Part shown: piece after piece, positions 2 through 14,071 of the stretch | Position numbering within the stretch: position 1 is the stretch's first letter | How the letters are laid out: the number at the start of each line of letters is the position of its first letter | Origin: a virus | Direction: 5' to 3' (one strand) | Virus record (IMG/VR): IMGVR_UViG_3300042343_000622 | Coordinates: 1 to 20,296 of that record | DNA: 20,296 bases | Made by a program: the position numbers and the translations under genes | The notes under the pieces: generated by a model | Database searches by the model: none | What the model saw: only the letters and a program-made list of their open reading frames with translations | What the model was told of the DNA's origin: nothing

Positions 2-361
2 AGAAGAGTTGCGGAGGTATCTAAATTAATGTTGGATGCTGGTATTGTGGTAATTGTGTCATTGATATCACCATTTGCTGCAGATAGGAATATTGCAAGA
101 AATATCATTGGTGAAAAATTTAATGAAATCTATATGGATTGTGCATTAACGGTATGTGAGGGTAGAGACCCTAAAGGATTGTATAAGAAAGCTAGAAATG
201 GTGATATAAAATTCTTTACAGGTATTGATTCTGGATATGATGTCCCTATATGTCCAGAGTATGTGATAGATACTGCATCATTAACTATTACCGAAAGTGG
301 TAATAAATTAATTGATTTTGTATCAAAAAAGTTGTTGACAACTAGAAAAACTAGTCTATAA
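2..361 (+). CDS. cysC: Adenylylsulfate (APS) kinase CysC, C-terminal part (5' truncated by window edge)
   Basis: APS kinase phosphorylates adenylylsulfate to PAPS in sulfate assimilation, in the cytosol. The reading frame is open from base 2, so the gene enters from outside the window and the P-loop is not visible. What remains matches the family closely in order: RRVAEVSKLMLDAG, then the ISPF block (ISPFAADRN), the RDPKGLYKKAR motif and FTGIDSGYDVP, all conserved signatures of bacterial CysC. The ATG at 29 is internal, because upstream codons also fit the family. The last residues (TTRKTSL) extend past the usual end. Since the N-terminus is missing, a longer fusion such as a CysNC-type enzyme cannot be excluded. 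Its place directly upstream of phage gene 32 marks it as a phage-carried auxiliary metabolic gene. The stop codon overlaps the -10 box of the gene 32 promoter. The family call is firm; the biological role in infection is inferred. Confidence 0.92.
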   Translation, partial: RRVAEVSKLMLDAGIVVIVSLISPFAADRNIARNIIGEKFNEIYMDCALTVCEGRDPKGLYKKARNGDIKFFTGIDSGYDVPICPEYVIDTASLTITESGNKLIDFVSKKLLTTRKTSL

Positions 362-362
362 T
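335..362 (+). promoter_or_regulatory. Host-type sigma70 promoter with perfect consensus boxes
   Basis: A perfect TTGACA (335-340) is followed after 16 bp by a perfect TATAAT (357-362). Transcription would start near 369 and run into gene 32. The spacer holds an inverted repeat, ACTAG (341-345) / CTAGT (351-355), around five A residues, which could be a protein-binding site. The promoter overlaps the end of the upstream cysC gene. Function is inferred from sequence only. Confidence 0.7.
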
Positions 363-401
363 GACAGTCTGTCCTGTAGAATATACAGTTTGTAGATTTA
401 T

Positions 402-409
402 TATAAATA
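402..409 (+). promoter_or_regulatory. T4-type late promoter box upstream of gene 32
   Basis: An exact TATAAATA octamer lies 92 bp before the gene 32 start. In T4 this octamer alone specifies late promoters read by the phage-modified polymerase, and T4 gene 32 also has a late promoter. In an AT-rich genome the octamer can arise by chance, so the intergenic position is the main support. Confidence 0.5.
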
Positions 410-415
410 TGCAAA

Positions 416-488
416 CGGTGAGCTATCCATCGAAGGGTTATACCAAGATAGTAAATTTTATTTTAATTAATGATTTATATTTTATAAT
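416..488 (+). promoter_or_regulatory. Possible gp32 autoregulatory leader (pseudoknot plus AU-rich tract)
   Basis: T4 gp32 represses its own mRNA by binding a leader pseudoknot and then an unstructured AU-rich run. Here GGTG (417-420) can pair with TACC (441-444), and CTATC (423-427) with GATAG (447-451). These pairings cross, giving an H-type pseudoknot. A nearly pure A/T tract (452-488) follows, up to the ribosome-binding site. One stem is short and alternative nested hairpins exist (ATCC 425-428 with GGGT 435-438), so this is a suggestion by analogy. Confidence 0.35.
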
Positions 489-492
489 AGGA
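489..492 (+). promoter_or_regulatory. Ribosome-binding site that fixes the gene 32 start
   Basis: AGGA lies 9 bases before the ATG at 502. It supports that start over the upstream in-frame ATG at 361, whose 47 extra codons have no gp32 likeness and cover the promoter and leader region. Confidence 0.7.
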
Positions 493-501
493 CAATTTAA
501 A

Positions 502-1458
502 ATGGCTAGAACTTTTGACTTATCGGCGTTACAAAATAAACTTAACACGAAGCCCATTTCCAGAAATAATTCATCTCGTTATCCTTTCTGGAATATGAGA
601 ATTGATGAATCTGCAACAGTACGATTCTTACCTGACAAAAATGAAGAAAATCCTTGGTTCTTACTGGAATACCATTCACATGAATTAATTATTGATGGTA
701 AAAAACGGTCTATACCATGTTTGAAACAATATGGTGAAGATTGCCCAATGTGCAAACGTTCACAAGAATTCTTCACTAAAGAAGGTAAAGATTCTGTTCG
801 TGGTAAACAAATGTATCGTAAACGTTCATGGTTAGGTCAGGTGTTGGTTGTAAAAGACCCATTGCCGGTTGATGTTGAAACTGGTGAAAACAATGATGGA
901 TTGTATAAAACTGTTTCATTAGGTGCTCAGATTTATGATTCTTTAGTAGCTGCTATTAAAGAGGGTGATGTTGAAAGTGCTCCGCATGCTTATGATGATG
1001 GTACTAACTTTGTTATCAGAAAAACACAATCTGAAAGTAAAGGACGTGGTAAAGAATCTTTTGCTGAATATAACAGAAGTAGATTCGAGAAATATCCATC
1101 AGAATTATCACCAGAAGTCGTAGAGTATATCGAAGAAAATATTGTTGATTTAGAAGATATCAGACCTTCCAAACCTGAGAAAACATATCTAGTTCAACAA
1201 ATGGCAGCATTTCTTCGTGAAGATGCTGATGAGGATGAATATGAATATGAAGCACCTACAAAACGTGTTTCCTCATTTAATGAAACTAAATCAACAAAAC
1301 CGGCTGCATTATTTTCGGAGGATGAAGATGAGTATGAAGCACCTGCTCCGAAAGTTAAAAAGCCTGTATATGTTCCAGAGTCTAGTGATGATGACGAGGA
1401 TGAAGATGCGTTATCTATGTTAAATAGATTACGTGGTAAATCTAATAAACCTGAATAG
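502..1458 (+). CDS. 32: Single-stranded DNA-binding protein gp32 (T4 type)
   Basis: It coats single-stranded DNA during phage replication, recombination and repair and recruits partner proteins. The 318-residue product compares with about 301 in T4. The N-terminus has a basic/serine stretch (NNSSRYPFW, residues 22-30), where family members carry the cooperativity segment. The core holds a likely zinc site made of a histidine (H58 or H60) with C73, C81 and C84 (CLKQYGEDCPMC), matching the His-Cys-Cys-Cys site of T4 gp32. The C-terminus, from about residue 240, is strongly acidic with runs such as EDEDEYEAP and DDDEDEDAL, the region that binds other replication proteins in T4. The start at ATG 502 is chosen from the AGGA site and the family N-terminus (MARTFDLSALQNKL). 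A perfect promoter, a late box and a possible operator leader precede it, and a strong terminator follows. Next downstream is uvsX, its functional partner. Confidence 0.95.
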   Translation: MARTFDLSALQNKLNTKPISRNNSSRYPFWNMRIDESATVRFLPDKNEENPWFLLEYHSHELIIDGKKRSIPCLKQYGEDCPMCKRSQEFFTKEGKDSVRGKQMYRKRSWLGQVLVVKDPLPVDVETGENNDGLYKTVSLGAQIYDSLVAAIKEGDVESAPHAYDDGTNFVIRKTQSESKGRGKESFAEYNRSRFEKYPSELSPEVVEYIEENIVDLEDIRPSKPEKTYLVQQMAAFLREDADEDEYEYEAPTKRVSSFNETKSTKPAALFSEDEDEYEAPAPKVKKPVYVPESSDDDEDEDALSMLNRLRGKSNKPE

Positions 1459-1472
1459 TCACAATCGTTAAG

Positions 1473-1517
1473 AGCATCCTAACCATTAATGTTCATGGTT
1501 AGGATGCTATTTAATTT
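1473..1517 (+). terminator. Intrinsic terminator after gene 32
   Basis: A perfect 14-bp stem (AGCATCCTAACCAT at 1473-1486 with its complement at 1495-1508) has an 8-base loop and is followed by an AT-rich run, ATTTAATTT. The stem is AT-containing and the T tract is imperfect, so termination may be partial. Confidence 0.75.
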
Positions 1518-1527
1518 ACTAAATGAT

Positions 1528-1531
1528 AGGA
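1528..1531 (+). promoter_or_regulatory. Ribosome-binding site that fixes the uvsX start
   Basis: AGGA lies 8 bases before the ATG at 1540. The upstream in-frame ATG at 1489 lies inside the terminator loop and has no such site, so it is rejected as the start. Confidence 0.7.
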
Positions 1532-1539
1532 ATAATAAT

Positions 1540-2571
1540 ATGCAATTTATGAAGAATTTACACAAATCAATGAATAAAATGGATGGTGTCACAACAGATG
1601 ATTCACCACCTAGATATTGGTTTGGTAGTGGGAATGTAACAATCAATAGAATTATTGGTGGGAGTTTCCATCAATTTTTGCCACAAGGTAGAATTACCGC
1701 ATTTGCTGGTGCTTCCGGGGCGGGAAAATCATTTTTATTAGCTAATGTATTAAAACAAGCACAATCTGAAGGTGCTATGATTTTTGTATTAGATTCTGAA
1801 AATGCCTTTGATAGAGATTTTGCTGGTGCTATAGGCATTGATACATCATCTGAGCATTATCATTGTGTTAGGGTTACAACTATTGATAATGTTACAAAAA
1901 TCATCTCTACCTTTATTAAAGGATATAAAGAAGATTATGAAGATGATTTTGAAAATGCTCCGAAAGTTGTCATTGCTATTGATAGTGCTGATATGTTGAT
2001 GACTAATTCAGAACATGATAAATTCAAGAAAGGTGATGGTAATGCTGACCAAGGTCAACAGGCTAAACAATTGAAAAGCATGTTAAAACCTTTTGTGAAC
2101 ACGATTTCTAATTTGAATATTAGTATCATCTTTACAAAACAAGTATATCCTGCTAATCAAGAACAAATCATGGCTGGTAATGGTAAATGGGTAGTTACGG
2201 AATCTATCAAATATTGTGCTTCTCAAATCGTATTGATTTCAAAATTAAAATTGAAAGATAAGGATTCTGTTACTGGTATCCGTATGAAGGTAGAAGGATA
2301 TAAGACAAGATTTACAAAACCTTTCCAAACCGTTACAGTAGAAGTTCCTTATGATGAAGGAATGTCACAATATAGTGGATTATTAGATGCTGCTATTGGA
2401 TTAGGTGTTGTTAAGGGTGGAACATGGAATTCTTATGGAGACCCTGAAGTAAAATTCCAATCTGGAAAATTTGAAGACCATGCCGAAGCAATTCTTAAAT
2501 TATGTGAAGAGAAATCTAATGCTTTCTTCAAAATATCTGCAGAATTAGAAGATTTGGAAGTTGTAGAATAA
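1540..2571 (+). CDS. uvsX: UvsX RecA-like recombinase
   Basis: UvsX is the T4-type RecA homologue. It forms filaments on single-stranded DNA, helped by gp32 and UvsY, and drives ATP-dependent strand exchange for recombination-dependent replication. Numbered from ATG 1540 (343 residues; T4 UvsX is about 390), the Walker A motif GASGAGKS is at residues 57-64. The segment FVLDSEN follows, with E87 in the place of the catalytic glutamate. A Walker B strand, VVIAIDSAD, has its aspartate at D148. A later segment, MAGNGKWVVTES, lies where the DNA-binding loop L2 region is expected. The C-terminus is acidic (ELEDLEVVE). The gene sits between two strong terminators, so it either depends on read-through from the gene 32 promoter or has an unrecognised promoter in the short gap. 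No defect is visible. Confidence 0.93.
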   Translation: MQFMKNLHKSMNKMDGVTTDDSPPRYWFGSGNVTINRIIGGSFHQFLPQGRITAFAGASGAGKSFLLANVLKQAQSEGAMIFVLDSENAFDRDFAGAIGIDTSSEHYHCVRVTTIDNVTKIISTFIKGYKEDYEDDFENAPKVVIAIDSADMLMTNSEHDKFKKGDGNADQGQQAKQLKSMLKPFVNTISNLNISIIFTKQVYPANQEQIMAGNGKWVVTESIKYCASQIVLISKLKLKDKDSVTGIRMKVEGYKTRFTKPFQTVTVEVPYDEGMSQYSGLLDAAIGLGVVKGGTWNSYGDPEVKFQSGKFEDHAEAILKLCEEKSNAFFKISAELEDLEVVE

Positions 2572-2578
2572 TATTATT

Positions 2579-2608
2579 AAAAGCTCCCACCTATGGTGGG
2601 AGCTTTTT
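2579..2608 (+). terminator. Intrinsic terminator after uvsX
   Basis: A GC-rich stem (AAAAGCTCCCACC with its complement, 13 bp, loop TAT) ends in a run of T. The next ribosome-binding site (AGGAG, 2609-2613) starts directly after the T run, so any read-through transcript would carry the hairpin immediately upstream of that start. Confidence 0.85.
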
Positions 2609-2623
2609 AGGAGAGATATAGTT

Positions 2624-3088
2624 ATGGCAAACATTATTGATGTATTAAAGAAAGATTTAAGAGTATTAGATAGTGTGATAGAATTATACCAAAATGATTT
2701 AATAGAAGCTGATGATATTATAAAATTAAAAGGTAAACAGATAGACTTTGCGAATGTTGAACATTCTGGGTGGGCTAATTATTATCATCAGAAAGGTGTT
2801 GAGGTTAAAAATATTAAAGATTATGTGGAAATGAAATTAGATGAGGTTCAAGGACAGTTATGGATGAAATATACTGAACATTATGATAGACAGTTAGCAC
2901 AAAAGGATATTGAAAGATATATAAAACAAAATCAAGAATATTTGGACATGTATGAAAAATATTTGAAGGTTAATGAATTATGGGGACAGTTCGAAAGGGT
3001 TAGAGAATCGTTTAAGACTAGAGGATATAATTTAAATAATCTTACAAAATTAATTACTGCTAATGTCCAAGAATGGGAAATGACTTAA
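2624..3088 (+). CDS. uvsY: UvsY-like recombination mediator
   Basis: In T4, UvsY loads UvsX onto gp32-coated single-stranded DNA. The product here has 154 residues (T4 UvsY has 137) and is highly charged and helical. The call rests on overall resemblance recalled from T4 and cyanophage UvsY: a central WxKYxxHYD-like stretch (KYTEHYDRQ), a helix LDMYEKYLKVNELWGQFERV, and a C-terminal arginine-glycine block (FKTRGYNLNNL) corresponding to the SRGF/NRGF block before the UvsY C-terminus. Position between uvsX and uvsW supports the role. The start is fixed by AGGAG (2609-2613), 10 bases upstream of the ATG. Similarity is low, so a profile comparison is needed; the alternative is an unrelated small coiled-coil protein. 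Confidence 0.72.
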   Translation: MANIIDVLKKDLRVLDSVIELYQNDLIEADDIIKLKGKQIDFANVEHSGWANYYHQKGVEVKNIKDYVEMKLDEVQGQLWMKYTEHYDRQLAQKDIERYIKQNQEYLDMYEKYLKVNELWGQFERVRESFKTRGYNLNNLTKLITANVQEWEMT

Positions 3089-3140: not shown

Positions 3141-5168
3141 ATGACAAGAGAAATAACAGTTCGGATTTTTGATGAGGTCAAATGCGCATTCTATGGATTG
3201 GATAGAGAGGTTATTGAACAATTGGTAGAGGATTATGCAATATTCATGGATGGTTATCGATTTGTTGCTACCTATCAAATTGGAAAATGGGATGGTAAAA
3301 AGCAATTCTTTACTAAGAATGGGGCAACCTATCTATTCTTATTGCCTAAAATTATTAAAAAATTAAAAAGTTGGGGATATAAAAATATTCGGTACGTGGA
3401 TGAACGTTCATCACCATTTCATGAAATATGTCCAACCACCATTGAAGATGATTATTTTTCACATATTATCAATACAAAAAGTAACGAACCTTATACCCTC
3501 ACAGACCATCAATTAGAGGCTGCTAAGACGATGGTAACCCATGGCGGTGGTATTGCATTGGCTGGTACTGGGTTCGGCAAAGCACAGCCATTATATTGCA
3601 AAATTTTGACACCTACTGGATGGACTACCATGGGTGATATTCAAAAAGGTGATTTGGTTATGACACCTAAGAATACCATTACAAAAATAATAGATACTTT
3701 TGAACAAGGTGTTACCAGAGCTTATAAAGTATTATTTGAGGATGGTAGTGAAACCTATTGTCATTCTGGCCATATTTGGAAAATTTATAATACTAGATGG
3801 TACGCCGATGATAAAGAACCATATTCTTTATATACTGCAAAGCAGATTATGGATAATATGAAAAAAACTAAAAATAACTATTATGTTCCATCTATTCCGG
3901 TACCTATTAATTTTGAAAAACAACAATATTCTATTGACCCATATCTTGCAGGAAGTATTTTACCATTCGTAGAATTAAAGGATGATAAATTAGTTATTAC
4001 CGAACAATCTGCCAGTACCCATCGTCATAGTCAAATATTATTGATGGATGCTATGGATGCTTATGCTCCATATGGGATTGTGTTGAAAGTAAGAACATCT
4101 GCAATAGGGGAAGATGTACTGGGTATATTATCTGCCACCGATGAATATTCTCAAAAAATATTAGATGTTGTTAAAAATTTTATTGAAAATAATAAAACCA
4201 TTCCTGAACAATATATTATATGTGACCAAGCAGATAGATTAAGATTCTTACAAGGAATGTGTGATGTTGGGGGAATGATTTCTGTTAATGGTCAGATTAA
4301 TGTATTAGTATTCCATTCTCAATTAAGAAAACAAATAATGGAAATGATATTATTACAGGGTGGTACCTTAGACCCGTTGAATAATAGACCACATTATAAT
4401 AAACAATATGGTATTACGGTTTACTTCTCCCATGGTAAGCCTGATGAATTCTTTACCATTATGGATAAGAAGAAGCATTTTTATTTACATCGGGCTGAAA
4501 ATTTAGAAACTATTACTAAAATTTCTAAAAATAGAAAGATTGTATCTATTACATATCATGGGATGGAAGAAACTAAATGTATTCTATTAGAGGATAAAGA
4601 CCATCTATATATTACAGATGATTGCATTATTACCCACAATACCATCCTTAATGCAGTATTAGTAGATTCTTATGCTAAAAAAGGATGTAAAACATTAACA
4701 ATTGTTCCAGCAAAAACATTGATTAAGCAAACTGTTGAACAATTTGAAAAACTAGGATTAGATGTTACCCATTATAATTCTTTGAATCCTTCGTTGGACC
4801 ATGACCATATTGTTACAACATGGCAAACATTACAGAATGTTCCTCATGTTATGTCACAATTCCAGATGGTGGTGGTTGATGAGTGTTTGGATGGTGAAAC
4901 ATTAATCACTATGGCAGATTATAATCATAAAAAAATTAAAGATATTGTTGCAGGTGATAAGATATTATCATATAATAATGGACACTATGAGGTTGATGAA
5001 GTGTTAAAATTGCATCAGAATCTATTAAAGTCTAATAATGAAAAAATGTATAGATTAGAATTTGATAATGGTGTAGTATTAGAAGTCACTGGCAATCATC
5101 TTATTATGACAGATAATGGTTATATTCGTGCTGATGATTTAAATGATGAAATTGTTATAGGATTGTGA
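3141..5168 (+). CDS. uvsW: UvsW helicase, N-terminal half, with a class 3 intein in motif I and a C-terminal split-intein N-fragment
   Basis: UvsW is a superfamily 2 helicase that processes branched DNA and R-loops and helps switch T4 replication to the recombination mode. The 675-residue precursor reads: helicase residues 1-147, intein 148-500, helicase 501-581, split-intein N-fragment 582-675. The N-terminal domain has DGYRF...GKWDG (residues 37-52), as in T4 UvsW. Motif I is AGTGFGK plus T501, so the intein sits between the lysine and threonine of Walker A. Motif Ia (TIVPAKTLIKQ), TTWQTLQ and VVVDE follow. The last is the first half of a DECH box, completed by the gene at 6421. No ribosome-binding site is visible before the ATG, but this start matches the family N-terminus. 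The protein cannot work until the first intein is excised and the second trans-splices. Confidence 0.93.
   Translation: MTREITVRIFDEVKCAFYGLDREVIEQLVEDYAIFMDGYRFVATYQIGKWDGKKQFFTKNGATYLFLLPKIIKKLKSWGYKNIRYVDERSSPFHEICPTTIEDDYFSHIINTKSNEPYTLTDHQLEAAKTMVTHGGGIALAGTGFGKAQPLYCKILTPTGWTTMGDIQKGDLVMTPKNTITKIIDTFEQGVTRAYKVLFEDGSETYCHSGHIWKIYNTRWYADDKEPYSLYTAKQIMDNMKKTKNNYYVPSIPVPINFEKQQYSIDPYLAGSILPFVELKDDKLVITEQSASTHRHSQILLMDAMDAYAPYGIVLKVRTSAIGEDVLGILSATDEYSQKILDVVKNFIENNKTIPEQYIICDQADRLRFLQGMCDVGGMISVNGQINVLVFHSQLRKQIMEMILLQGGTLDPLNNRPHYNKQYGITVYFSHGKPDEFFTIMDKKKHFYLHRAENLETITKISKNRKIVSITYHGMEETKCILLEDKDHLYITDDCIITHNTILNAVLVDSYAKKGCKTLTIVPAKTLIKQTVEQFEKLGLDVTHYNSLNPSLDHDHIVTTWQTLQNVPHVMSQFQMVVVDECLDGETLITMADYNHKKIKDIVAGDKILSYNNGHYEVDEVLKLHQNLLKSNNEKMYRLEFDNGVVLEVTGNHLIMTDNGYIRADDLNDEIVIGL
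3582..4640 (+). other. Class 3 intein in the UvsW Walker A motif, with decayed LAGLIDADG endonuclease domain
   Basis: The intein has 353 residues and lies between GTGFGK and T. It starts with the non-nucleophilic Ala (AQPLYCKILTPTGW), then the block A-type MGDIQKGD. The block B region HSGHIW has Trp at intein residue 66, block F has Cys (ETKCILLED, protein residue C480), and the intein ends in HN before Thr+1. Trp-Cys-Thr with a non-nucleophilic first residue is the published signature of class 3 inteins, which use the block F Cys to start splicing. The central region keeps the outline of two LAGLIDADG helices (LAGSILPFV at residue 269 and LQGMCDVGG at 370). The catalytic aspartates expected in GDG/DADG are missing from both, so the endonuclease is probably inactive while the splicing residues are intact. 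Confidence 0.88.
4884..5165 (+). other. Split intein, N-terminal fragment (94 residues)
   Basis: The fragment begins with the Cys nucleophile in CLDGETLIT directly after VVVDE of helicase motif II, and runs to the stop codon. Block A is followed by IVAGDKIL. Block B has TGNH (T69 and H72 of the fragment), the TxxH catalytic pair of class 1 inteins. There is no endonuclease domain. By my count it has about 17 acidic and 9 basic residues, whereas the partner is slightly basic; this fits charge-driven association of natural split inteins. The partner fragment starts at 6421. Confidence 0.92.
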
Positions 5169-5187
5169 AATGGTAGAAAGTTTTGAA

Positions 5188-5203
5188 CATAGTGTACACT
5201 ATG
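5188..5203 (+). repeat. 16-bp perfect palindrome
   Basis: CATAGTGTACACTATG is its own reverse complement and lies 20 bases after the stop of the N-half of uvsW. No T tract follows, so it looks more like a protein-binding site than a terminator. Its function is unknown. Confidence 0.5.
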
Positions 5204-5223
5204 CTGTATAGCAACTACATTAC

Positions 5224-5257
5224 ATCCCATAATTCAAGAAAAAATATGGGATATTTT
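5224..5257 (+). terminator. Weak terminator-like stem-loop after the N-half of uvsW
   Basis: An 8-bp stem, ATCCCATA (5224-5231) / TATGGGAT (5245-5252), with a 13-base loop is followed by ATTTT. It is weak compared with the other terminators here. Confidence 0.35.
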
Positions 5258-5311
5258 GAAATAATCTGGTTATAATAAATATTACCGTCTTTTATTAATT
5301 TGAGGATTGTC

Positions 5312-5542
5312 ATGTGTCGTTATAAGGTTGAAAAGTATTATATTGGTTTAGAAGATGGTTTTGTTGTTAAAGATAATTTGAAGATAAAGTCCCCACCCTA
5401 CTGTAACCCCCTACTGATTCCGTTTATATATGATGATACTGGAAAGAAACAATTAATAAATGATGGTGATTATATAATGATTAAAGATGGTGAAAAAAGT
5501 ATACAAAACAATATCATAATAAAGTTTAAAAAATATATGTAA
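5312..5542 (+). CDS. Small protein of unknown function between the split uvsW halves
   Basis: This 76-residue protein is not recognised. The ATG at 5312 is preferred over an in-frame TTG at 5300 because GAGGA (5302-5306) stands 5 bases before it. The product is basic, rich in Lys, Ile, Tyr and Asp, with two glycine turns (GLEDGF, NDGDYIMIKDGEK) suggesting a small beta-rich fold. It has no signal peptide or membrane segment. It shows no HNH, GIY-YIG or LAGLIDADG motif, although endonuclease genes are known to sit between halves of split-intein phage genes. A box one mismatch from the late consensus (AATAAATA, 5274-5281) precedes it. It could be expressed independently of uvsW. Confidence 0.6.
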   Translation: MCRYKVEKYYIGLEDGFVVKDNLKIKSPPYCNPLLIPFIYDDTGKKQLINDGDYIMIKDGEKSIQNNIIIKFKKYM

Positions 5543-5579
5543 ATACTAGTTTATAACTAATTTACAAGAGGTAAACTTT

Positions 5580-6032
5580 ATGGCTGATAATGAAAATGGT
5601 AATGCTGAACCTACCACCACTAACAAATCTAAACCCACCACTACGACTACCGTTGCGGTAATAAATGATGAGCATGATGAATCACACCATCATACTGATG
5701 AAAATTTAGACGGTGAATATTTGGTATGTGATGATATTCGTGAAGAGGTAATACAAATTGTGAAACCTTTTAGGGTTGAAGTATTCACACATTGTAATAA
5801 TACTTTATATTCCTTAGATATTTCTAAAATGCCTATTATTCAAGTATATCAAAGTGAAGCATATGATAAACCATATGTATTAATCATTGAATTTGATAAT
5901 GGGAAACAATTGAAATTCTATACTAATAATAGAAATCATCCACATAAACAGATTAAACATATTTTCTTAAAGAATGAAGCATTTCAAAAATTAATAACTG
6001 ATTTAGGATTGGTTTACACTATTGATATGTAA
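5580..6032 (+). CDS. Unknown protein with Thr-rich N-terminus, between the split uvsW halves
   Basis: This 150-residue protein is not recognised. A good ribosome-binding site (AGAGGT, 5567-5572) precedes the ATG. The first 55 residues are low-complexity and probably disordered: Thr clusters (EPTTTNKSKPTTTTT) followed by an acidic/histidine stretch (HDESHHH). Residues from about 56 onward look folded, with strands such as RVEVFTHC, PYVLIIEFDNG and KQLKFYT, and a C-terminal helix (EAFQKLITDLG). No nuclease motif is visible. The Thr clusters resemble the stalk of the vWA protein at 11798 in composition only. A terminator follows directly, so its transcript probably ends before the next gene. Confidence 0.65.
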   Translation: MADNENGNAEPTTTNKSKPTTTTTVAVINDEHDESHHHTDENLDGEYLVCDDIREEVIQIVKPFRVEVFTHCNNTLYSLDISKMPIIQVYQSEAYDKPYVLIIEFDNGKQLKFYTNNRNHPHKQIKHIFLKNEAFQKLITDLGLVYTIDM

Positions 6033-6039
6033 TATTATG

Positions 6040-6068
6040 GTGGATAGGATTTAATCCTATCCACTTTT
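6040..6068 (+). terminator. Intrinsic terminator between the split uvsW halves
   Basis: GTGGATAGGAT (6040-6050) pairs perfectly with ATCCTATCCAC (6054-6064): an 11-bp stem with loop TTA, followed by TTTT. It separates the two uvsW halves, so the C-half needs read-through or its own promoter. Confidence 0.8.
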
Positions 6069-6090
6069 GTTAAAATAATGGGGTAATTAT

Positions 6091-6417
6091 ATGAAAGACC
6101 AAGAATTTATAGATGTTGAAATTATTATCGTAGAAGATGCACATGAACAAATGAATAATGAACAATTAGATTTATTATTATCTTTTGATATTGTAACTAG
6201 ATGTGAATATGAAAATGTGGATATAACAATATATGAGGATTTTTCAGTATGCTATCCTCCTGAAAAATATGATGAAATTTTAAATTTTTTAAAAACATTA
6301 CCTGATGATACCTATAGTTTTAAAATATTTAATGATGATGAAGATATAATTAAACAATATGGTGATTTAGAAGTAGAACGAGATGATGTATTTGTATTCA
6401 ATCAACAACACAATTAA
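6091..6417 (+). CDS. Small acidic protein of unknown function, just upstream of the C-half of uvsW
   Basis: This 108-residue protein is not recognised. The start is supported by GGGGT (6080-6084) ahead of the ATG. Asp and Glu make up roughly a third of the residues, with clusters such as EIIIVEDAHEQ, NDDEDII and EVERDDVFVF, and basic residues are few. Such acidity occurs in DNA-mimic inhibitors, but no family likeness supports that here. Predicted alternating strands and helices suggest a small folded domain. Its stop codon is 3 bases before the ATG of the uvsW C-half, which has no ribosome-binding site of its own, so translation of the two is probably coupled. No endonuclease motif is seen. 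Confidence 0.65.
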   Translation: MKDQEFIDVEIIIVEDAHEQMNNEQLDLLLSFDIVTRCEYENVDITIYEDFSVCYPPEKYDEILNFLKTLPDDTYSFKIFNDDEDIIKQYGDLEVERDDVFVFNQQHN

Positions 6418-6420
6418 AAA

Positions 6421-6525
6421 ATGAAATTAATTAACCGTACTGAAATTACTAAACCAGATATTGTATATAATTTAGAAGTTAAGAATAATCATAATTATCT
6501 TGCTAATAATGTAGTAGTATCTAAT
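6421..6525 (+). other. Split intein, C-terminal fragment (35 residues)
   Basis: The fragment begins at the start codon and has the block F pattern DIVYNLEVKNNHNYLANN. It ends VVVSN before Cys+1 (C36). The terminal Asn and the Cys nucleophile are present. The usual penultimate His is Ser, which natural inteins tolerate. Length and start match known split-intein C-fragments, and the break point matches the N-fragment at 4884. Confidence 0.92.
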
Positions 6526-7308
6526 TGTCATGGAACTAAAGCAGCACAATTACAATCCTTATTGATTGACCATGGTGCAAATATTGCACATAGGTATGGA
6601 TTGACTGGTACTTTACCTAAAGACCCTTGTAGCAAAATGTTAGTACATGTTGCTTTAGGTGAGGTAAAATGTGAATACCATGCTAAGGATTTGATTGCTA
6701 AAGGATGGTTAGCAACATTAGATATATCTATTCTACAATTAGACGATGTTTCATATTTGGAAAATAATGGAATACCTCGTGCCAATTTGATGATGTATGA
6801 AGAAGAAGAACATTTTGTAAAAACGAATGTCCGAAGAATGGAATGGATTGCTAATACTATCATGGAAAATAAAAAACAATCTAAACTTGGGAATACGTTA
6901 GTATTAGTGAATACAATTAAATATGGTAAAGAATTACATAAATTGATACCTAATTCTTATGTTTTGAATGGTTCTAACAGTGATAAATCAAGGAAAGCTG
7001 TTTACGATTTGTTTGAGACTAATGATGATGTGGTAGCTATATGTACTAAACAGATTGCTGGTGTAGGATTATCTATTGATAGAATATTTAATTTAGTCTA
7101 TGTAGATGCTGGAAAATCATTTATTACTACTATCCAACAGATTGGTAGAGGATTGAGAAAAGGTAGGGATAAAGATTCTGTAAATATTTTAGATATATGT
7201 AGCAATCTTCCATCAGCATCAAAAAGGTTACGAGAACGTATTAAACATTATAAGGATGCTAGTTATCCTTATAAGAAATATTTAATAGGGTACGAAAATG
7301 ATAGTTGA
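6421..7308 (+). CDS. uvsW: UvsW helicase, C-terminal half, led by a split-intein C-fragment
   Basis: The 295-residue product begins with a 35-residue C-intein, then C36-H-G, completing the DECH box begun by the gene at 3141. Helicase motif III is LTGTL (residues 61-65), as in T4 UvsW (LSGSL). Motif V is IAGVGLSIDRIF. Motif VI is QQIGRGLRKG (residues 239-248), compared with QTIGRVLRK in T4. ATP hydrolysis therefore needs motif I from one precursor and motif VI from the other. After both splicing events the helicase would be about 488 residues (147 + 81 + 260), close to the 503 of T4 UvsW. No ribosome-binding site precedes the ATG; coupling to the gene ending 3 bases upstream is likely. A late promoter box follows the gene, marking the border to the structural block. 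Confidence 0.93.
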   Translation: MKLINRTEITKPDIVYNLEVKNNHNYLANNVVVSNCHGTKAAQLQSLLIDHGANIAHRYGLTGTLPKDPCSKMLVHVALGEVKCEYHAKDLIAKGWLATLDISILQLDDVSYLENNGIPRANLMMYEEEEHFVKTNVRRMEWIANTIMENKKQSKLGNTLVLVNTIKYGKELHKLIPNSYVLNGSNSDKSRKAVYDLFETNDDVVAICTKQIAGVGLSIDRIFNLVYVDAGKSFITTIQQIGRGLRKGRDKDSVNILDICSNLPSASKRLRERIKHYKDASYPYKKYLIGYENDS

Positions 7309-7314
7309 TAAATA

Positions 7315-7322
7315 TATAAATA
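7315..7322 (+). promoter_or_regulatory. T4-type late promoter box before the tail-fibre pair
   Basis: An exact TATAAATA lies in the 52-bp gap between uvsW and the first structural gene, 39 bp before its ATG. Transcription would start near 7330. The position at the switch from recombination to structural genes supports function. Confidence 0.65.
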
Positions 7323-7360
7323 ATACGATATATATTTAAACCATCAGGATTTTTTGCATT

Positions 7361-8695
7361 ATGAAATTACCATTTAGACAAGGTATTGTTAAATACACTT
7401 CAACTAATGATAAAGTACCTACCTTTTTATATAATAATAGATTGGATACGTATGTTACATTAATCGCAAATACTAATAATGTGTTAATTACTTTTGCACA
7501 CAACGATGTTGATTACCTATTTGAAGAAAAGACTAGTATTGATAATGCATGGGGTCCTTTTGCCACGAATATCAAATATTGGTTATTCTGGGATATTGAT
7601 GTAAAAACTGGGAAACGTACATTTGGTAGTACCACCAATGAACCCTTGGTTTCTGAGATTATTCCAGAAAATCCTTCAGCAGACCAACATTGGTTCAATT
7701 TAAAAGATAATTACATTATTACGTATAATAACACAACTAGTAAAAATGATTATAGAAAATTAAGTAAAAATGCTATGTATGTTTGGGAAGATGCACAATG
7801 GACCCAACGTATTAGAGTATTTGCTGGTACATATTACACAGGTGACATTACTATTAATTCTTTATCCTCACAAGTAGGATTATATGAACAATGTCATGCT
7901 GGATATATTTTATATGATGATAATGATACGCCTACCCAACAAGTAAGATTAGATGGTACATATAAATTTTTAACCACCGAATCTCATTTTTATAACTCTA
8001 AAACTGCTACTACTACCGTCAGTTTAGACCCTATTGTTCATTATGGTAAAGCCTCTGTTGCTTTATCTAAATTTGACTTTGTGGGAATATCTGGGAATGA
8101 TAGTTTTGGTAAGGCATCTTCAGCAGCAAACTCATTGCTTCCAGCAATAGGTATTTTGGAGGTAAACGTCCCACAAAATACTAACTGTGTTGTTGTCACT
8201 AATACCAATATTGAAAATCCAGCATGGAATTTTACTGCTGACCCAACAACCCCAGTATATTTAACTCCTACCGGAGTATCTACAATACCACCAACAGCCG
8301 GGTTGATTCAACAGGTTGGGTATGTTATTAATCATAATACAATATTTGTAGATATCTCTAACCCTGTAATATACCACGATGTTATTCAAACAAATATTTC
8401 AGAACAAATAAAGGTAGATTTGTCTAATGGTAAATTATATACCACGTTAGTTAGTAGTTCTGATTATACTAGTTCGGTATCATATGATTTATATTCTACT
8501 GCATACAAACAACCTATTCCGAATAGATTGTGGACAATTGTTCATAATTCACATTTACCAAATTTTTTAGTACAAGTTTATGATGAACTAGGAAATTACC
8601 AAATCCCAAGTAATATTACTAGAAAAGATAATAATACGATAGAAGTTCTATTTACTAATAGAATTCAAGGTACTGCTTTGGTATTTTTATTTTAA
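7361..8695 (+). CDS. Tail-fibre-type structural protein (first of a tandem paralogous pair)
   Basis: This 444-residue protein belongs to a family I recall from marine T4-like phages, usually annotated as a tail fibre or structural protein. Its N-terminal half matches the next gene almost block for block: LPFRQGIVK, AWGPF, LFWDIDVKTGKRTFG, QHWFNL, IRVFAGTYY, QVGLYEQ, LTTESHFY. The middle (about residues 215-385) is beta-rich. The last 56 residues form one copy of a module (RLWTIVHN...IQGTALVFLF) that recurs in the next two genes. AGGA (7346-7349) precedes the ATG. It is probably a trimeric fibre or decoration on the tail, made late from the box at 7315. No chaperone or receptor-binding motif is recognised, so the exact place in the virion is unknown. 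Confidence 0.75.
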   Translation: MKLPFRQGIVKYTSTNDKVPTFLYNNRLDTYVTLIANTNNVLITFAHNDVDYLFEEKTSIDNAWGPFATNIKYWLFWDIDVKTGKRTFGSTTNEPLVSEIIPENPSADQHWFNLKDNYIITYNNTTSKNDYRKLSKNAMYVWEDAQWTQRIRVFAGTYYTGDITINSLSSQVGLYEQCHAGYILYDDNDTPTQQVRLDGTYKFLTTESHFYNSKTATTTVSLDPIVHYGKASVALSKFDFVGISGNDSFGKASSAANSLLPAIGILEVNVPQNTNCVVVTNTNIENPAWNFTADPTTPVYLTPTGVSTIPPTAGLIQQVGYVINHNTIFVDISNPVIYHDVIQTNISEQIKVDLSNGKLYTTLVSSSDYTSSVSYDLYSTAYKQPIPNRLWTIVHNSHLPNFLVQVYDELGNYQIPSNITRKDNNTIEVLFTNRIQGTALVFLF

Positions 8696-10824: not shown

Positions 10825-11801
10825 TGCAAAAACATATCCCTATTGCCGTTACCGGCAGATGTATAATTTCTGATGATTTAGGAAATATCATTTTAGATAA
10901 AACAAATGCTATTCATCCTATGAATTTATCTCGTATTTTTTCAAGAGCATTAGCAAAAGAAAAAAATAGTTATATACACAAAATTGCTATTGGTAATGGG
11001 GGTACATATGTTGACCCGGCAAATAATATAAAATATAAAGCACCGAATATTGGTAATTATAAAACTAAGTTATATAATGAAACATATTCTCAAATATTAG
11101 ATGGTACCAATAATTCTAGTATAGTAAGTAATGAATTAACATCATATTCACAATCGGTAGTTACTATATATTTGAACAAAAATGAACCATCTAATGAATA
11201 TTTGTCACAAAGTTATAGTATCCCTACTGAAAGTTCATATACTTTTGACGAAATAGCATTATTTGCTCCTGGCGTATCTGATGATTCACCTACTAGTGGA
11301 TATCAATCAGCAGTATTTAATACTCCAAATATTACGATAGATACTGGATTGTTGAAAAATACTAATTATGTTTTTTCAATTGTTGTTGATGGTACTAAAT
11401 TTGATTATACTTTAAATATTCCTAGTAATGATGCTAGTGTAGTTACCTTTGCAAAACTGGTAACATATATTAATGGTATATCTGGTTTGAATAATTATAT
11501 CACTGTTACCATGTCACAAGGGTATTTGACCTTTACTAGTAAAACAACATCTTCTACATCTACTATTAAAATAGTAGATAATTCTGATAATGCATTATGG
11601 ATATTTAAAAATATTTCAACATTTACTAAATTGGATATTGCGGTGAATGGTAAAGATTCAGGATTACAAAATAATCCTAATAATCCTGATGCTGAATATG
11701 CCAGAATGATTACTCACCTGATATTTAATCCTATTACAAAACCATATGATAGGATTTATACAGTAGATTACACCTTAAATATTAATGTTGTTCAAGCATG
11801 A
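10824..11801 (+). CDS. Virion structural protein, paralogue 1 of 3
   Basis: This 325-residue protein belongs to a family with three copies here. The shared N-terminus reads GRCIISDDLGNIILDKTNAIHP, then an arginine-rich helix (MNLSRIFSRALAKE), IAIGNGGTYVD and KLYNETYSQI. A later FDEIALF strand is also shared. Inserted between residues about 165 and 255 is a small domain (DTGLLKNTNYVFSIVVDG...YLTFTSK) that recalls short inserted domains in phage fibre proteins. The C-terminus (GLQNNP...MITHLIFNPI...IYTVDYTLNI) returns to the main fold. The gene overlaps its neighbours by 1 and 4 bases, indicating translational coupling. No enzyme motif is seen. I recall similar N-termini in T4-like marine phage structural proteins, but cannot assign a baseplate or fibre position. 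Confidence 0.68.
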   Translation: MQKHIPIAVTGRCIISDDLGNIILDKTNAIHPMNLSRIFSRALAKEKNSYIHKIAIGNGGTYVDPANNIKYKAPNIGNYKTKLYNETYSQILDGTNNSSIVSNELTSYSQSVVTIYLNKNEPSNEYLSQSYSIPTESSYTFDEIALFAPGVSDDSPTSGYQSAVFNTPNITIDTGLLKNTNYVFSIVVDGTKFDYTLNIPSNDASVVTFAKLVTYINGISGLNNYITVTMSQGYLTFTSKTTSSTSTIKIVDNSDNALWIFKNISTFTKLDIAVNGKDSGLQNNPNNPDAEYARMITHLIFNPITKPYDRIYTVDYTLNINVVQA

Positions 11802-14071
11802 AACAAAAATTACCAATAACTATTTCTGGACATTGTTTAATTACCGATGATTTAGGTAATACACATTTAAACCAAACTAATGCTATTCATCCTAGTAATA
11901 TGTCTAGGATTATTGGAAGAATATTAGCACATGAAGATAATTGTTGGATTGATAGAATAGCTTTTGGTAATGGTGGTACATTTTATGAAAATCAAGCTGG
12001 TGTAACATATTTAAGATTAAAAACCGTTAATGATGGAATATCTCCAGATACTGCCGATTGGCAATCTAGGTTATACAATGAAACATATACTGAAAAGGTA
12101 GCTGACGGTTCTGGTAAAGGTACCGTTATACCACAATTCATCAGTTCTGACCATACTTCATCTGGTGTAGGTTGTTCTAGTGTGGATAAAGATAGAATCT
12201 CGCAGGTAGTGTTACATGCTCAAATAGGATTAGGTGAGCCTACTGGACAATTAAAAACTGATTATAATACAAATGAAGAATCATTTGTATTTGATGAGAT
12301 TGGGTTATATTCTCGTGGAATATCTAATAAACCATCTAAAGGTTATCAAATAGTAAAAATATCTGATTCTGCTAATACTGGTTTATCTAAAAAAATATAT
12401 GATTTTACTATATCGGTAGATGATAAAACACCAGTTACCATAAAAATATCTCCTAAAGATAATACATTAACAGAATTGATGTTATTATTGAAAAATGCTT
12501 TATCCATACAGAATGTTGAAGTATCTTTAGAGTATGGTAACATAAAATTTGAAAGTAGAAAAGAAGGTAAAGATTCTAAAATCAATATTATTAAACAATC
12601 TAAACCTGCCGAATCATGGTTATTTGATAAAATAACAGGTTTTGTTGAGATTGATAAGCCCGTTAATGGTAGTTATATGGGATTTAAAAATAATCCTTGT
12701 GATGGTAATTTAGAACAAGAAAGACTATTAACACATTTAATATTTTCTCCAGTATTAAAATCGGCTAATAGAATTTTTAATATTGTTTATACATTGACCG
12801 TATATGTTAATCGTACATATGAAAAAGCAACTATAGATATTATTTTGCCTCCAGCGGTAACAACGACAACACGAGCACCTACTACAACCACCACAAAAGC
12901 TCCGACTACGACTACTACCAGAAAACCGGTAACCACTACTACTAGGGCGGCCACTACAACGAGAGCACCTACTACCACTACTACAAAAGCTCCGACTACT
13001 ACGACTACTTACCGTGGACCATCTACTACCACGACTAGAATACCAGTGACTACGACTACTGGTGCTCCAACTACGACAAAAGCTCCGACTACAACTACCA
13101 CGAAAGCCCCAACGACAACGACTACATATGGTGGTCCATCTACCACTACGACTAGAAAACCAGTAACTACTACCACGAAAGCACCAGTTACCAGTACAAC
13201 GAAAGGACCTACGACTACTACCACTAAGGCTCCGACAACTACTACGTCAACTACTAAAGCACCCACAACTACGACGACTAAAGCCCCCACAACTACGACT
13301 ACTAGGGCACCGACTACCACAACTACTGCAGTGCCGGATTCACCAGGCAATCCAGTGTTGACACAAAAAGGCATCGATATCGTATTTGTTATAGATTATA
13401 CTTCGAGTATGGGTGGAATTATTGAAAATGTGAAAACAAATATCTCTAATATTGTGTCTTTGATTTCCAGTAAATCGAATATCAACTATAGATTAGGATT
13501 AGTATTATTCGATGAATATACTGCATTTGATTATGGGCAAGCCAAAGGATGCTTGAGTAGCAATGATTATATCAGTTTGCCATCATCCCAAAAATATGTT
13601 AATAATAGTGCTGCATTAGGTGGCAGAGTACAAGTTATTACTGCCATGGAAATGATGCAGACAAATAATAACTTGTCTTTCATAACACAACTTAACAAAA
13701 TTAATAAATCTACTTTTGTTCTTGGTTACGGTGTTGGTGGTCCAGAACCAGGGGATATTGCATTAGATAAAACTTATAATAATTTTGCCGGAACCTGGAG
13801 AGATAATGTTGCAAAAATGGTTGTTTTAATTACAGATGCTACGCCTAGTGGTATTGATGATACTACTACTGTAACAGATACTACATTTATGACTAGCCTT
13901 ACACAGCAATACTACAACAAAAACATAAGAGTATTGTTATTAACTACTGACAATATAAAAAATAATACGGAACAATCTTACGTTAATATGGCTGTTAAAA
14001 CCGGGGGGAGTGTATCAACTCCTATTACTAATGTATCATTAGTGACTAGTACAATTAACGCCATTCCATAG
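11798..14071 (+). CDS. Structural protein with Thr-rich stalk and C-terminal von Willebrand factor A domain (paralogue 2 of 3)
   Basis: This 757-residue protein has three parts. Residues 1-353 are a paralogue of the preceding protein (GHCLITDDLGNTHLNQTNAIHP, AFGNGGTF, RLYNETYTEK, FDEIGLYSRG, an inserted DTGL-type domain, LLTHLIFSPV). Residues about 354-512 are a low-complexity stalk of repeated TTTTxAP and TTTTRKPV units. Residues 525-757 form a vWA-type domain: GIDIVFVIDYTSSMG supplies the first metal-site loop (D533, T535, S537), T615 lies in VITAMEMM, and D680 in VLITDATPSG. The usual DxSxS is DxTxS here, a conservative change. vWA domains bind protein or glycan ligands, often through a metal ion. 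By design this looks like a surface adhesin on a long flexible stalk attached to the virion through its N-terminal domain. The start overlaps the upstream stop (ATGA). Domain calls are firm; the adhesion role is inferred. Confidence 0.82.
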   Translation: MKQKLPITISGHCLITDDLGNTHLNQTNAIHPSNMSRIIGRILAHEDNCWIDRIAFGNGGTFYENQAGVTYLRLKTVNDGISPDTADWQSRLYNETYTEKVADGSGKGTVIPQFISSDHTSSGVGCSSVDKDRISQVVLHAQIGLGEPTGQLKTDYNTNEESFVFDEIGLYSRGISNKPSKGYQIVKISDSANTGLSKKIYDFTISVDDKTPVTIKISPKDNTLTELMLLLKNALSIQNVEVSLEYGNIKFESRKEGKDSKINIIKQSKPAESWLFDKITGFVEIDKPVNGSYMGFKNNPCDGNLEQERLLTHLIFSPVLKSANRIFNIVYTLTVYVNRTYEKATIDIILPPAVTTTTRAPTTTTTKAPTTTTTRKPVTTTTRAATTTRAPTTTTTKAPTTTTTYRGPSTTTTRIPVTTTTGAPTTTKAPTTTTTKAPTTTTTYGGPSTTTTRKPVTTTTKAPVTSTTKGPTTTTTKAPTTTTSTTKAPTTTTTKAPTTTTTRAPTTTTTAVPDSPGNPVLTQKGIDIVFVIDYTSSMGGIIENVKTNISNIVSLISSKSNINYRLGLVLFDEYTAFDYGQAKGCLSSNDYISLPSSQKYVNNSAALGGRVQVITAMEMMQTNNNLSFITQLNKINKSTFVLGYGVGGPEPGDIALDKTYNNFAGTWRDNVAKMVVLITDATPSGIDDTTTVTDTTFMTSLTQQYYNKNIRVLLLTTDNIKNNTEQSYVNMAVKTGGSVSTPITNVSLVTSTINAIP
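12857..13330 (+). repeat. Thr-rich low-complexity coding repeat (TTTTxAP units)
   Basis: About 158 codons encode repeats such as TTTTTKAP, TTTTTRAP, TTTTRKPV and TYGGPS. Threonine codons are mixed (ACT, ACC, ACG, ACA) rather than copied exactly, so the protein repeat is kept while the DNA repeat is scrambled. The segment is richer in C than its surroundings. It joins two folded domains of one protein. Confidence 0.92.

What the first reader, a model, noticed from the sequence alone, without database searches (positions are those of the whole stretch)
4884..6525. UvsW helicase gene broken in two at its DECH box by a natural split intein
The N-half ends VVVDE followed by a Cys1 intein fragment of 94 residues with TxxH. 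The C-half starts with a 35-residue block F/G fragment ending SN, then CHG. Joined, the exteins give VVVDECHG, the intact motif II, and a helicase of normal length. Natural split inteins are known in phage replication genes, but a UvsW-type helicase split inside its catalytic motif II is not one I recall. Helicase activity would depend on trans-splicing of two separately translated proteins.
Basis: partly seen in the sequence, partly recalled or inferred. Interest (0 to 1): 0.88.

Follow-up and report, generated by a model that had tools for sequence, protein, structure and literature searches.

The report
Phage helicase gene split by intein
In this uncultured T4-like phage the DNA-repair helicase UvsW is encoded as two separate genes whose protein products are almost certainly stitched together by a natural split intein that cuts through the enzyme's catalytic site, an arrangement that turns out to be widespread in phages, including cultured Salmonella phages in which it could be tested directly.

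Summary
Window 3141-5168 ends in VVVDE plus a 94-residue intein N-fragment (Cys1, TGNH). Window 6421-7308 starts with a 35-residue intein C-fragment (ends SN), then CHG. Joined, the exteins match T4 UvsW (2OCA, E=2.7e-25) across an intact DECH box. Cys1, TxxH and the terminal Asn are (nearly) invariant in 55 homologous inteins, and both fragments are under purifying selection.

It is not unique. The same split intein at the same DE|CH site occurs in Salmonella phage S16 and kin, Proteus phage PM2, Prevotella Lak phages and scores of IMG/VR contigs. In most, a homing-endonuclease-type gene lies between the halves (the known 'fractured gene' arrangement); in a few the intein is contiguous. Large genomes checked hold no second, intact UvsW.

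Splicing is inferred, not shown. Verdict: a new member of a known kind with unusual local anatomy.

The parts
3141..3581 (+). UvsW extein 1 (N-terminal domain through Walker A Lys, GTGFGK)
   Evidence: Pfam UvsW_N PF21241; joined exteins match T4 UvsW 2OCA; segment limits
3582..4640 (+). Contiguous 353-aa intein in Walker A (GK|AQPLYC...IITHN|T); class 3 WCT triplet; degenerate LAGLIDADG endonuclease
   Evidence: dN/dS 0.06-0.13
4641..4883 (+). UvsW extein 2, from Walker A Thr to VVVDE of motif II
4884..5165 (+). Int-N, 94-aa N-fragment of the split intein (Cys1, TGNH); stop codon 5166-5168
   Evidence: TIGR01445 E=1.6e-9, Hint E=6.5e-9; alignment with S16, PM2 and Lak fragments
5300..5542 (+). 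Gap gene 1 (80 aa from TTG; an ATG at 5312 may be the real start), function unknown
   Evidence: conserved in L006, L086, L087; dN/dS about 0.1; not found elsewhere in IMG/VR
5580..6032 (+). Gap gene 2 (150 aa), function unknown
   Evidence: conserved; dN/dS 0.19-0.24; not found elsewhere in IMG/VR
6039..6065 (+). Terminator-like hairpin (12 bp stem, T-rich tail) between the two intein halves
   Evidence: different sequence at the same place in L087/L009; 5 of 58 gaps, all of this clade; 0 of 1000 shuffles reach it
6091..6417 (+). Gap gene 3 (108 aa), function unknown; stops 3 nt before the C-half start codon
   Evidence: conserved; dN/dS 0.14-0.20; not found elsewhere in IMG/VR
6421..6525 (+). 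Int-C, 35-aa C-fragment of the split intein, ending VVVSN
   Evidence: TIGR01443 E=2e-4, above cut-off; alignment with S16, PM2, Lak
6526..7305 (+). UvsW extein 3, from CHG of motif II to the C-terminus (helicase domain 2); stop codon 7306-7308
   Evidence: Helicase_C PF00271 E=9e-7; phrog_9690 E=1e-44; 2OCA alignment

Best explanation
UvsW is made as two polypeptides. The first carries exteins 1 and 2, interrupted at Walker A by a contiguous class-3-type intein, and ends in the N-fragment of a class 1 split intein. The second starts with the matching C-fragment and carries extein 3. The two fragments associate, fold into one Hint domain and trans-splice through Cys1, Cys+1 and the terminal Asn, joining DE to CH and restoring motif II (DECH). 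The Walker A intein removes itself in cis and restores GKT. The product is a 488-aa UvsW helicase. Most members of this intein family carry a homing-endonuclease-type gene between the halves; in this clade that gene is absent, and three small phage genes plus a terminator-like hairpin lie there. Shown: anatomy, homology, conservation of splicing residues, purifying selection, lack of a second UvsW in large relatives. Inferred: the splicing itself, past loss of the endonuclease gene, and termination at the hairpin.
For: Intein profiles on both fragments; joined fragments match DnaX, DnaB, NrdJ-1 and gp41-1 inteins in the PDB; joined exteins match T4 UvsW across DECH; same split intein at the same site in S16, PM2, Lak phages and many IMG/VR contigs; contiguous form in L010 and others with a confident Hint fold; Cys1, B:7 Thr and B:10 His 55/55, terminal Asn 54/55; dN/dS of Int-N 0.09-0.15; no N-half with enough downstream sequence lacks a C-half; a single, split UvsW in complete or large genomes.
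Against: No expression or splicing data. The penultimate residue is Ser, not His, though Ser is the rule in this family (40/55) and such variation is reported for phage inteins (PMC5050341). No clear Shine-Dalgarno sequence precedes the C-half start. No second-UvsW search was possible in this phage itself, since only 20 kb is known.
Confidence: 0.93

Rival explanations
1. The halves associate without splicing, or the gene is a decayed, non-splicing fossil, so that helicase activity is absent or comes from a non-covalent two-chain enzyme.
For: Unspliced split genes can work as two chains (the 'genes-in-pieces' ribonucleotide reductase, cited in PMC3322345 and PMC10448857). T4 UvsW is not strictly essential (own knowledge), so loss would be tolerable.
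Against: Splicing residues are conserved across 55 inteins; dN/dS well below 1 in both fragments and all exteins; an unspliced intein fragment would sit inside the ATPase motif II.
Confidence: 0.05
2. The gap is an RNA intron or another RNA-level event joins the two reading frames, so that one polypeptide with a contiguous intein is made.
For: Group I introns are common in T4-like genes (general knowledge), and the intein is contiguous in some relatives.
Against: No intron family matches 4800-6700; the gap holds three selected genes and a terminator-like hairpin; the C-half begins with its own ATG at the canonical Int-C start, as in S16, PM2 and most loci.
Confidence: 0.01
3. The arrangement is an assembly chimera.
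For: Window and L006 switch from about 88% to about 100% identity at 6457, inside the C-fragment, so one of these two contigs could be a chimera of close relatives.
Against: L006, L086, L087 and L009 all have the same architecture, and L087/L009 differ from the window on both sides of that point. A chimera of two such relatives would have the same structure anyway.
Confidence: 0.01

Closest known systems
'Fractured genes' of phage metagenomes (Dassa et al. 2009, doi 10.1093/nar/gkp095; split inteins gp41-1, gp41-8, NrdJ-1, IMPDH-1)
   Same: Phage replication or nucleotide-metabolism gene broken by a split intein, usually with a homing-endonuclease gene between the halves; most relatives of the window have exactly this layout.
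   Different: Host gene is UvsW, which I do not recall from that work (the paper was not held). The window's clade has no endonuclease gene in the gap but three other genes and a terminator-like hairpin.
Split UvsW genes of Salmonella phage S16 and kin, Proteus phage PM2 and Prevotella Lak phages (public genomes)
   Same: Same intein (46-56% identity in Int-N) at the same DE|CH site of UvsW.
   Different: They have an endonuclease-type gene between the halves and no Walker A intein; S16 and PM2 annotate the halves as 'DNA helicase' without mention of an intein.
Mycobacterium smegmatis DnaB (PMC6195587)
   Same: A helicase with two inteins of different splicing class, one of them class 3 in the P-loop with the Walker A hydroxyl residue as +1.
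   Different: Its second intein is contiguous and sits in motif H4; here the second is split and sits in motif II.
Mycobacteriophage TerL inteins (PMC5050341)
   Same: TerL1-a sits between Walker A Lys and Thr, exactly as the Walker A intein here; TerL1-e sits in Walker B.
   Different: Terminases, not a helicase; the passages read do not describe them as split.
Pseudomonas phage MIJ3 DNA polymerase B (PMC6892783)
   Same: Reported split intein with an HNH endonuclease gene between the halves of a replication gene.
   Different: Different host gene, and the endonuclease gene is present.

Membership tests
Class 1 split intein | Block A with Cys or Ser at position 1 directly after the N-extein | tested here: met
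   Cys1 at 4884 after VVVDE; Cys in 55/55 relatives
Class 1 split intein | Block B TxxH | tested here: met
   TGNH; T and H 55/55
Class 1 split intein | Blocks F and G with terminal Asn and Cys/Ser/Thr at +1 | tested here: met
   VYNLEVKNNHNYLANNVVVSN|C; Asn 54/55. Penultimate residue is Ser, not His
Class 1 split intein | Fragments on separate ORFs, split between blocks B and F | tested here: met
   ORFs 3141-5168 and 6421-7308
Class 1 split intein | Fragments complement and splice in trans | not testable with these tools
   Needs co-expression; only homology, conservation and selection were tested
UvsW helicase | UvsW N-terminal domain and SF2 helicase core with intact motifs after joining | tested here: met
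   PF21241 at cut-off; 2OCA E=2.7e-25 over residues 24-462 with DECH aligned
UvsW helicase | ATPase and branch-migration or R-loop unwinding activity | not testable with these tools
   Needs biochemistry
Class 3 intein (the Walker A intein) | No nucleophile at position 1; WCT triplet at B:12, F:4, G:5 | tested here: met
   Ala1; W66, C333 and T351 invariant in window, L006, L087, L010 and L039; definition in PMC5050341
'Fractured gene' with endonuclease gene between the halves | Homing-endonuclease gene in the gap | tested here: not met
   No match to a model built from four relatives' endonuclease genes in the window or its four relatives; present in 58 other loci

The most novel reading that the evidence does not exclude
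In this phage clade the split has been taken over for regulation: with the endonuclease gene gone and a terminator placed between the halves, the N-half (with two small genes) and the C-half (with one) are separate transcription units, so active UvsW forms only when both are expressed and both the Walker A and the motif II inteins have spliced, a protein-level AND gate that times UvsW-dependent recombination and replication.
Probability: 0.1. Interest if true: 0.75.

Novelty: new member of a known kind. Interest (0 to 1): 0.5.

Why it matters
It identifies a widespread, apparently undescribed insertion site for split inteins, motif II of the UvsW helicase, present in cultivated phages, so trans-splicing can be tested in an ordinary Salmonella phage infection. 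It shows one intein family in three states (split with endonuclease gene, split without, contiguous), useful for working out how split inteins arise and fuse. It corrects the reading of UvsW as two separate 'helicase' genes in deposited genomes. It also adds a set of natural split inteins with penultimate Ser to the pool for protein engineering.

Tried and rejected
Intron in the gap: no Rfam intron match. Frameshift or simple gene fission: rejected, because both junctions carry full intein motifs and removing the intein residues restores DECH exactly. Endonuclease remnant in the gap: a model built from four relatives' endonuclease genes found nothing in the window clade. Gap genes elsewhere: three IMG/VR scans found them only in the same four contigs; Pfam, NCBIfam and PHROGs gave nothing usable. 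AlphaFold of the Walker A intein was too poor to use (pLDDT 48.8). Literature: no held paper has 'split intein' with UvsW; of the seven papers with 'intein' and UvsW the three opened do not describe this. Dassa 2009 and Carvajal-Vallejos 2012 were not held. The intein tree needs at least three changes between split and contiguous but cannot give their direction.

Full report
WHAT IS THERE. The N-half ORF (3141-5168, 675 aa) and the C-half ORF (6421-7308, 295 aa) are as described. The N-half ends VVVDE|CLDGETLI...TGNH...IGL-stop; the C-half starts MKLINRTEI...NHNYLANNVVVSN|CHG. The N-fragment scores on TIGR01445 (E=1.6e-9) and Pfam Hint (6.5e-9), the C-fragment on TIGR01443 (2e-4, above cut-off). 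PHROGs 16259 and 9690 already group such halves.

A SECOND INTEIN. The N-half also holds a contiguous 353-aa intein at 3582-4640, between Walker A Lys and Thr (GTGFGK|AQPLYC...IITHN|TILNAV). It starts with Ala and has Trp, Cys and Thr at the class 3 positions, invariant in five sequences (definition in PMC5050341, and PMC6195587). It matches gp41-1 and mycobacterial class 3 DnaB inteins in the PDB and, end to end, inteins in many phages. Both LAGLIDADG motifs have lost their last acidic residue (PFVE and DVGG, against GDG and DTDG in L039), so this endonuclease is probably dead (inference). Taking out both inteins leaves 488 aa that align to T4 UvsW (2OCA) over residues 24-462, E=2.7e-25, with DECH opposite DECH.

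RELATIVES. The same split intein at the same site is in Salmonella phages S16, STP4-a, SEA1 and others, Proteus phage PM2 and Prevotella Lak phages. A scan of IMG/VR gave 147 relatives, of which 80 loci were kept. Of the loci held (some overlap or are near-copies), 58 are split with a TnsA-like/NUMOD3 endonuclease-type gene between the halves, 20 are split without it, 8 are contiguous, and 3 are cut off soon after the N-half. No N-half with enough downstream sequence lacks its C-half. That the gene between belongs to the EDxHD/Vsr family of Dassa 2009 is my inference from its position and motifs; Pfam itself gives TnsA-like and NUMOD3. L010 carries both inteins, at the same two sites, in one contiguous ORF; its motif II intein is predicted as a Hint domain (pLDDT 90.8; TM 0.86-0.88 to DnaB inteins). 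L070-L071, L076 and L079-L081 have different N- and C-exteins; those of L070 match another helicase family, phrog_2488. The scan patterns were built on DEC-flanked inteins, so the counts say nothing about other sites, nor about how many UvsW genes lack the intein.

IS IT FUNCTIONAL? In 55 distinct inteins Cys1, B:7 Thr and B:10 His are invariant and the terminal Asn is 54/55; the penultimate residue is Ser in 40. Against the close relatives dN/dS is 0.09-0.15 for Int-N, 0.07 for Int-C (against L087), 0.01-0.16 for the exteins and 0.06-0.13 for the Walker A intein. The Int-C value against L006 (0.36) rests on five differences next to a recombination point and is not informative. S16, PM2, Lak-B4 and five IMG/VR contigs of 168-360 kb give a single UvsW hit, the split one. 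These facts are hard to explain unless the halves are joined; splicing remains inferred.

THE GAP. The window and its four relatives have no endonuclease gene between the halves. Instead there are three small ORFs (5300-5542, 5580-6032, 6091-6417), conserved (dN/dS 0.08-0.24) and found only in the same contigs by three IMG/VR scans. A 12-bp hairpin with a T-rich tail (6039-6065) lies between gap genes 2 and 3; L087/L009 have a different hairpin sequence in the same place. With one fixed criterion, hairpins were found in the five gaps of this clade and in none of the other 53 (some of those gaps are short), and none of 1000 dinucleotide shuffles reached 12 bp. Over the whole window, looser terminator matches are no commoner than chance, so the case rests on the length of this stem and its repeated position. 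Gap gene 3 stops 3 nt before the C-half, which suggests coupled translation (inference).

HOW IT WORKS. Most likely, cis-splicing restores GKT and trans-splicing restores DECH, giving one 488-aa helicase. The simplest history is that an endonuclease gene once sat in the gap, as in most relatives, and was replaced; the tree does not fix the direction of change.

STANDING. Split inteins in phage replication genes are a known kind, and every element here has a precedent: fractured genes, P-loop class 3 inteins, two inteins in one helicase, and split-intein halves separated by other genes (cyanobacterial DnaE, own knowledge). The UvsW motif II site seems undescribed in the held literature, but the key paper could not be read and the sequences have been public for years. 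Hence: new member of a known kind, interest 0.5.

Noticed in passing
window 6457-8550 (against L006): Identity to contig 3300042372_000184 jumps from about 88% to about 100% at 6457, inside the Int-C coding sequence: recombination between close phages, or a chimeric contig.
   Followed up: partly
window 6039-6065: Terminator-like hairpin between the intein halves, with a different sequence at the same place in L087/L009.
   Followed up: yes
L011:1920-2927: A different P-loop intein, Cys1 type, inserted just before SGKS of UvsW (ATA|C...HN|SGKS), in a gene that also has the motif II split intein; so two P-loop sites are used in this family.
   Followed up: partly
L070, L071, L076, L079-L081: The same motif II intein with different exteins; those of L070 match phrog_2488, another helicase family. 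In the 131-kb record of L080 a separate open UvsW-like gene also scores.
   Followed up: partly
window 5170-5260 and L009:6134-6358: L009 and L087 have an extra 74-aa Cys-containing ORF right after the N-half; the window keeps what looks like its two ends (MVESFEHSVHYAV-stop, and TTLHPIIQEKIWDIL) with the middle missing.
   Followed up: no
window 11798-14071: 757-aa ORF with long APTTTTT-type repeats and a C-terminal von Willebrand A domain (PF00092, E=9e-7), among ORFs with similar N-termini (10824, 11798, 14081).
   Followed up: no
window 361-3088: Recombination gene cluster upstream of uvsW: gp32-like SSB, UvsX-like recombinase, UvsY-like mediator, none interrupted by an intein profile match.
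   Followed up: partly
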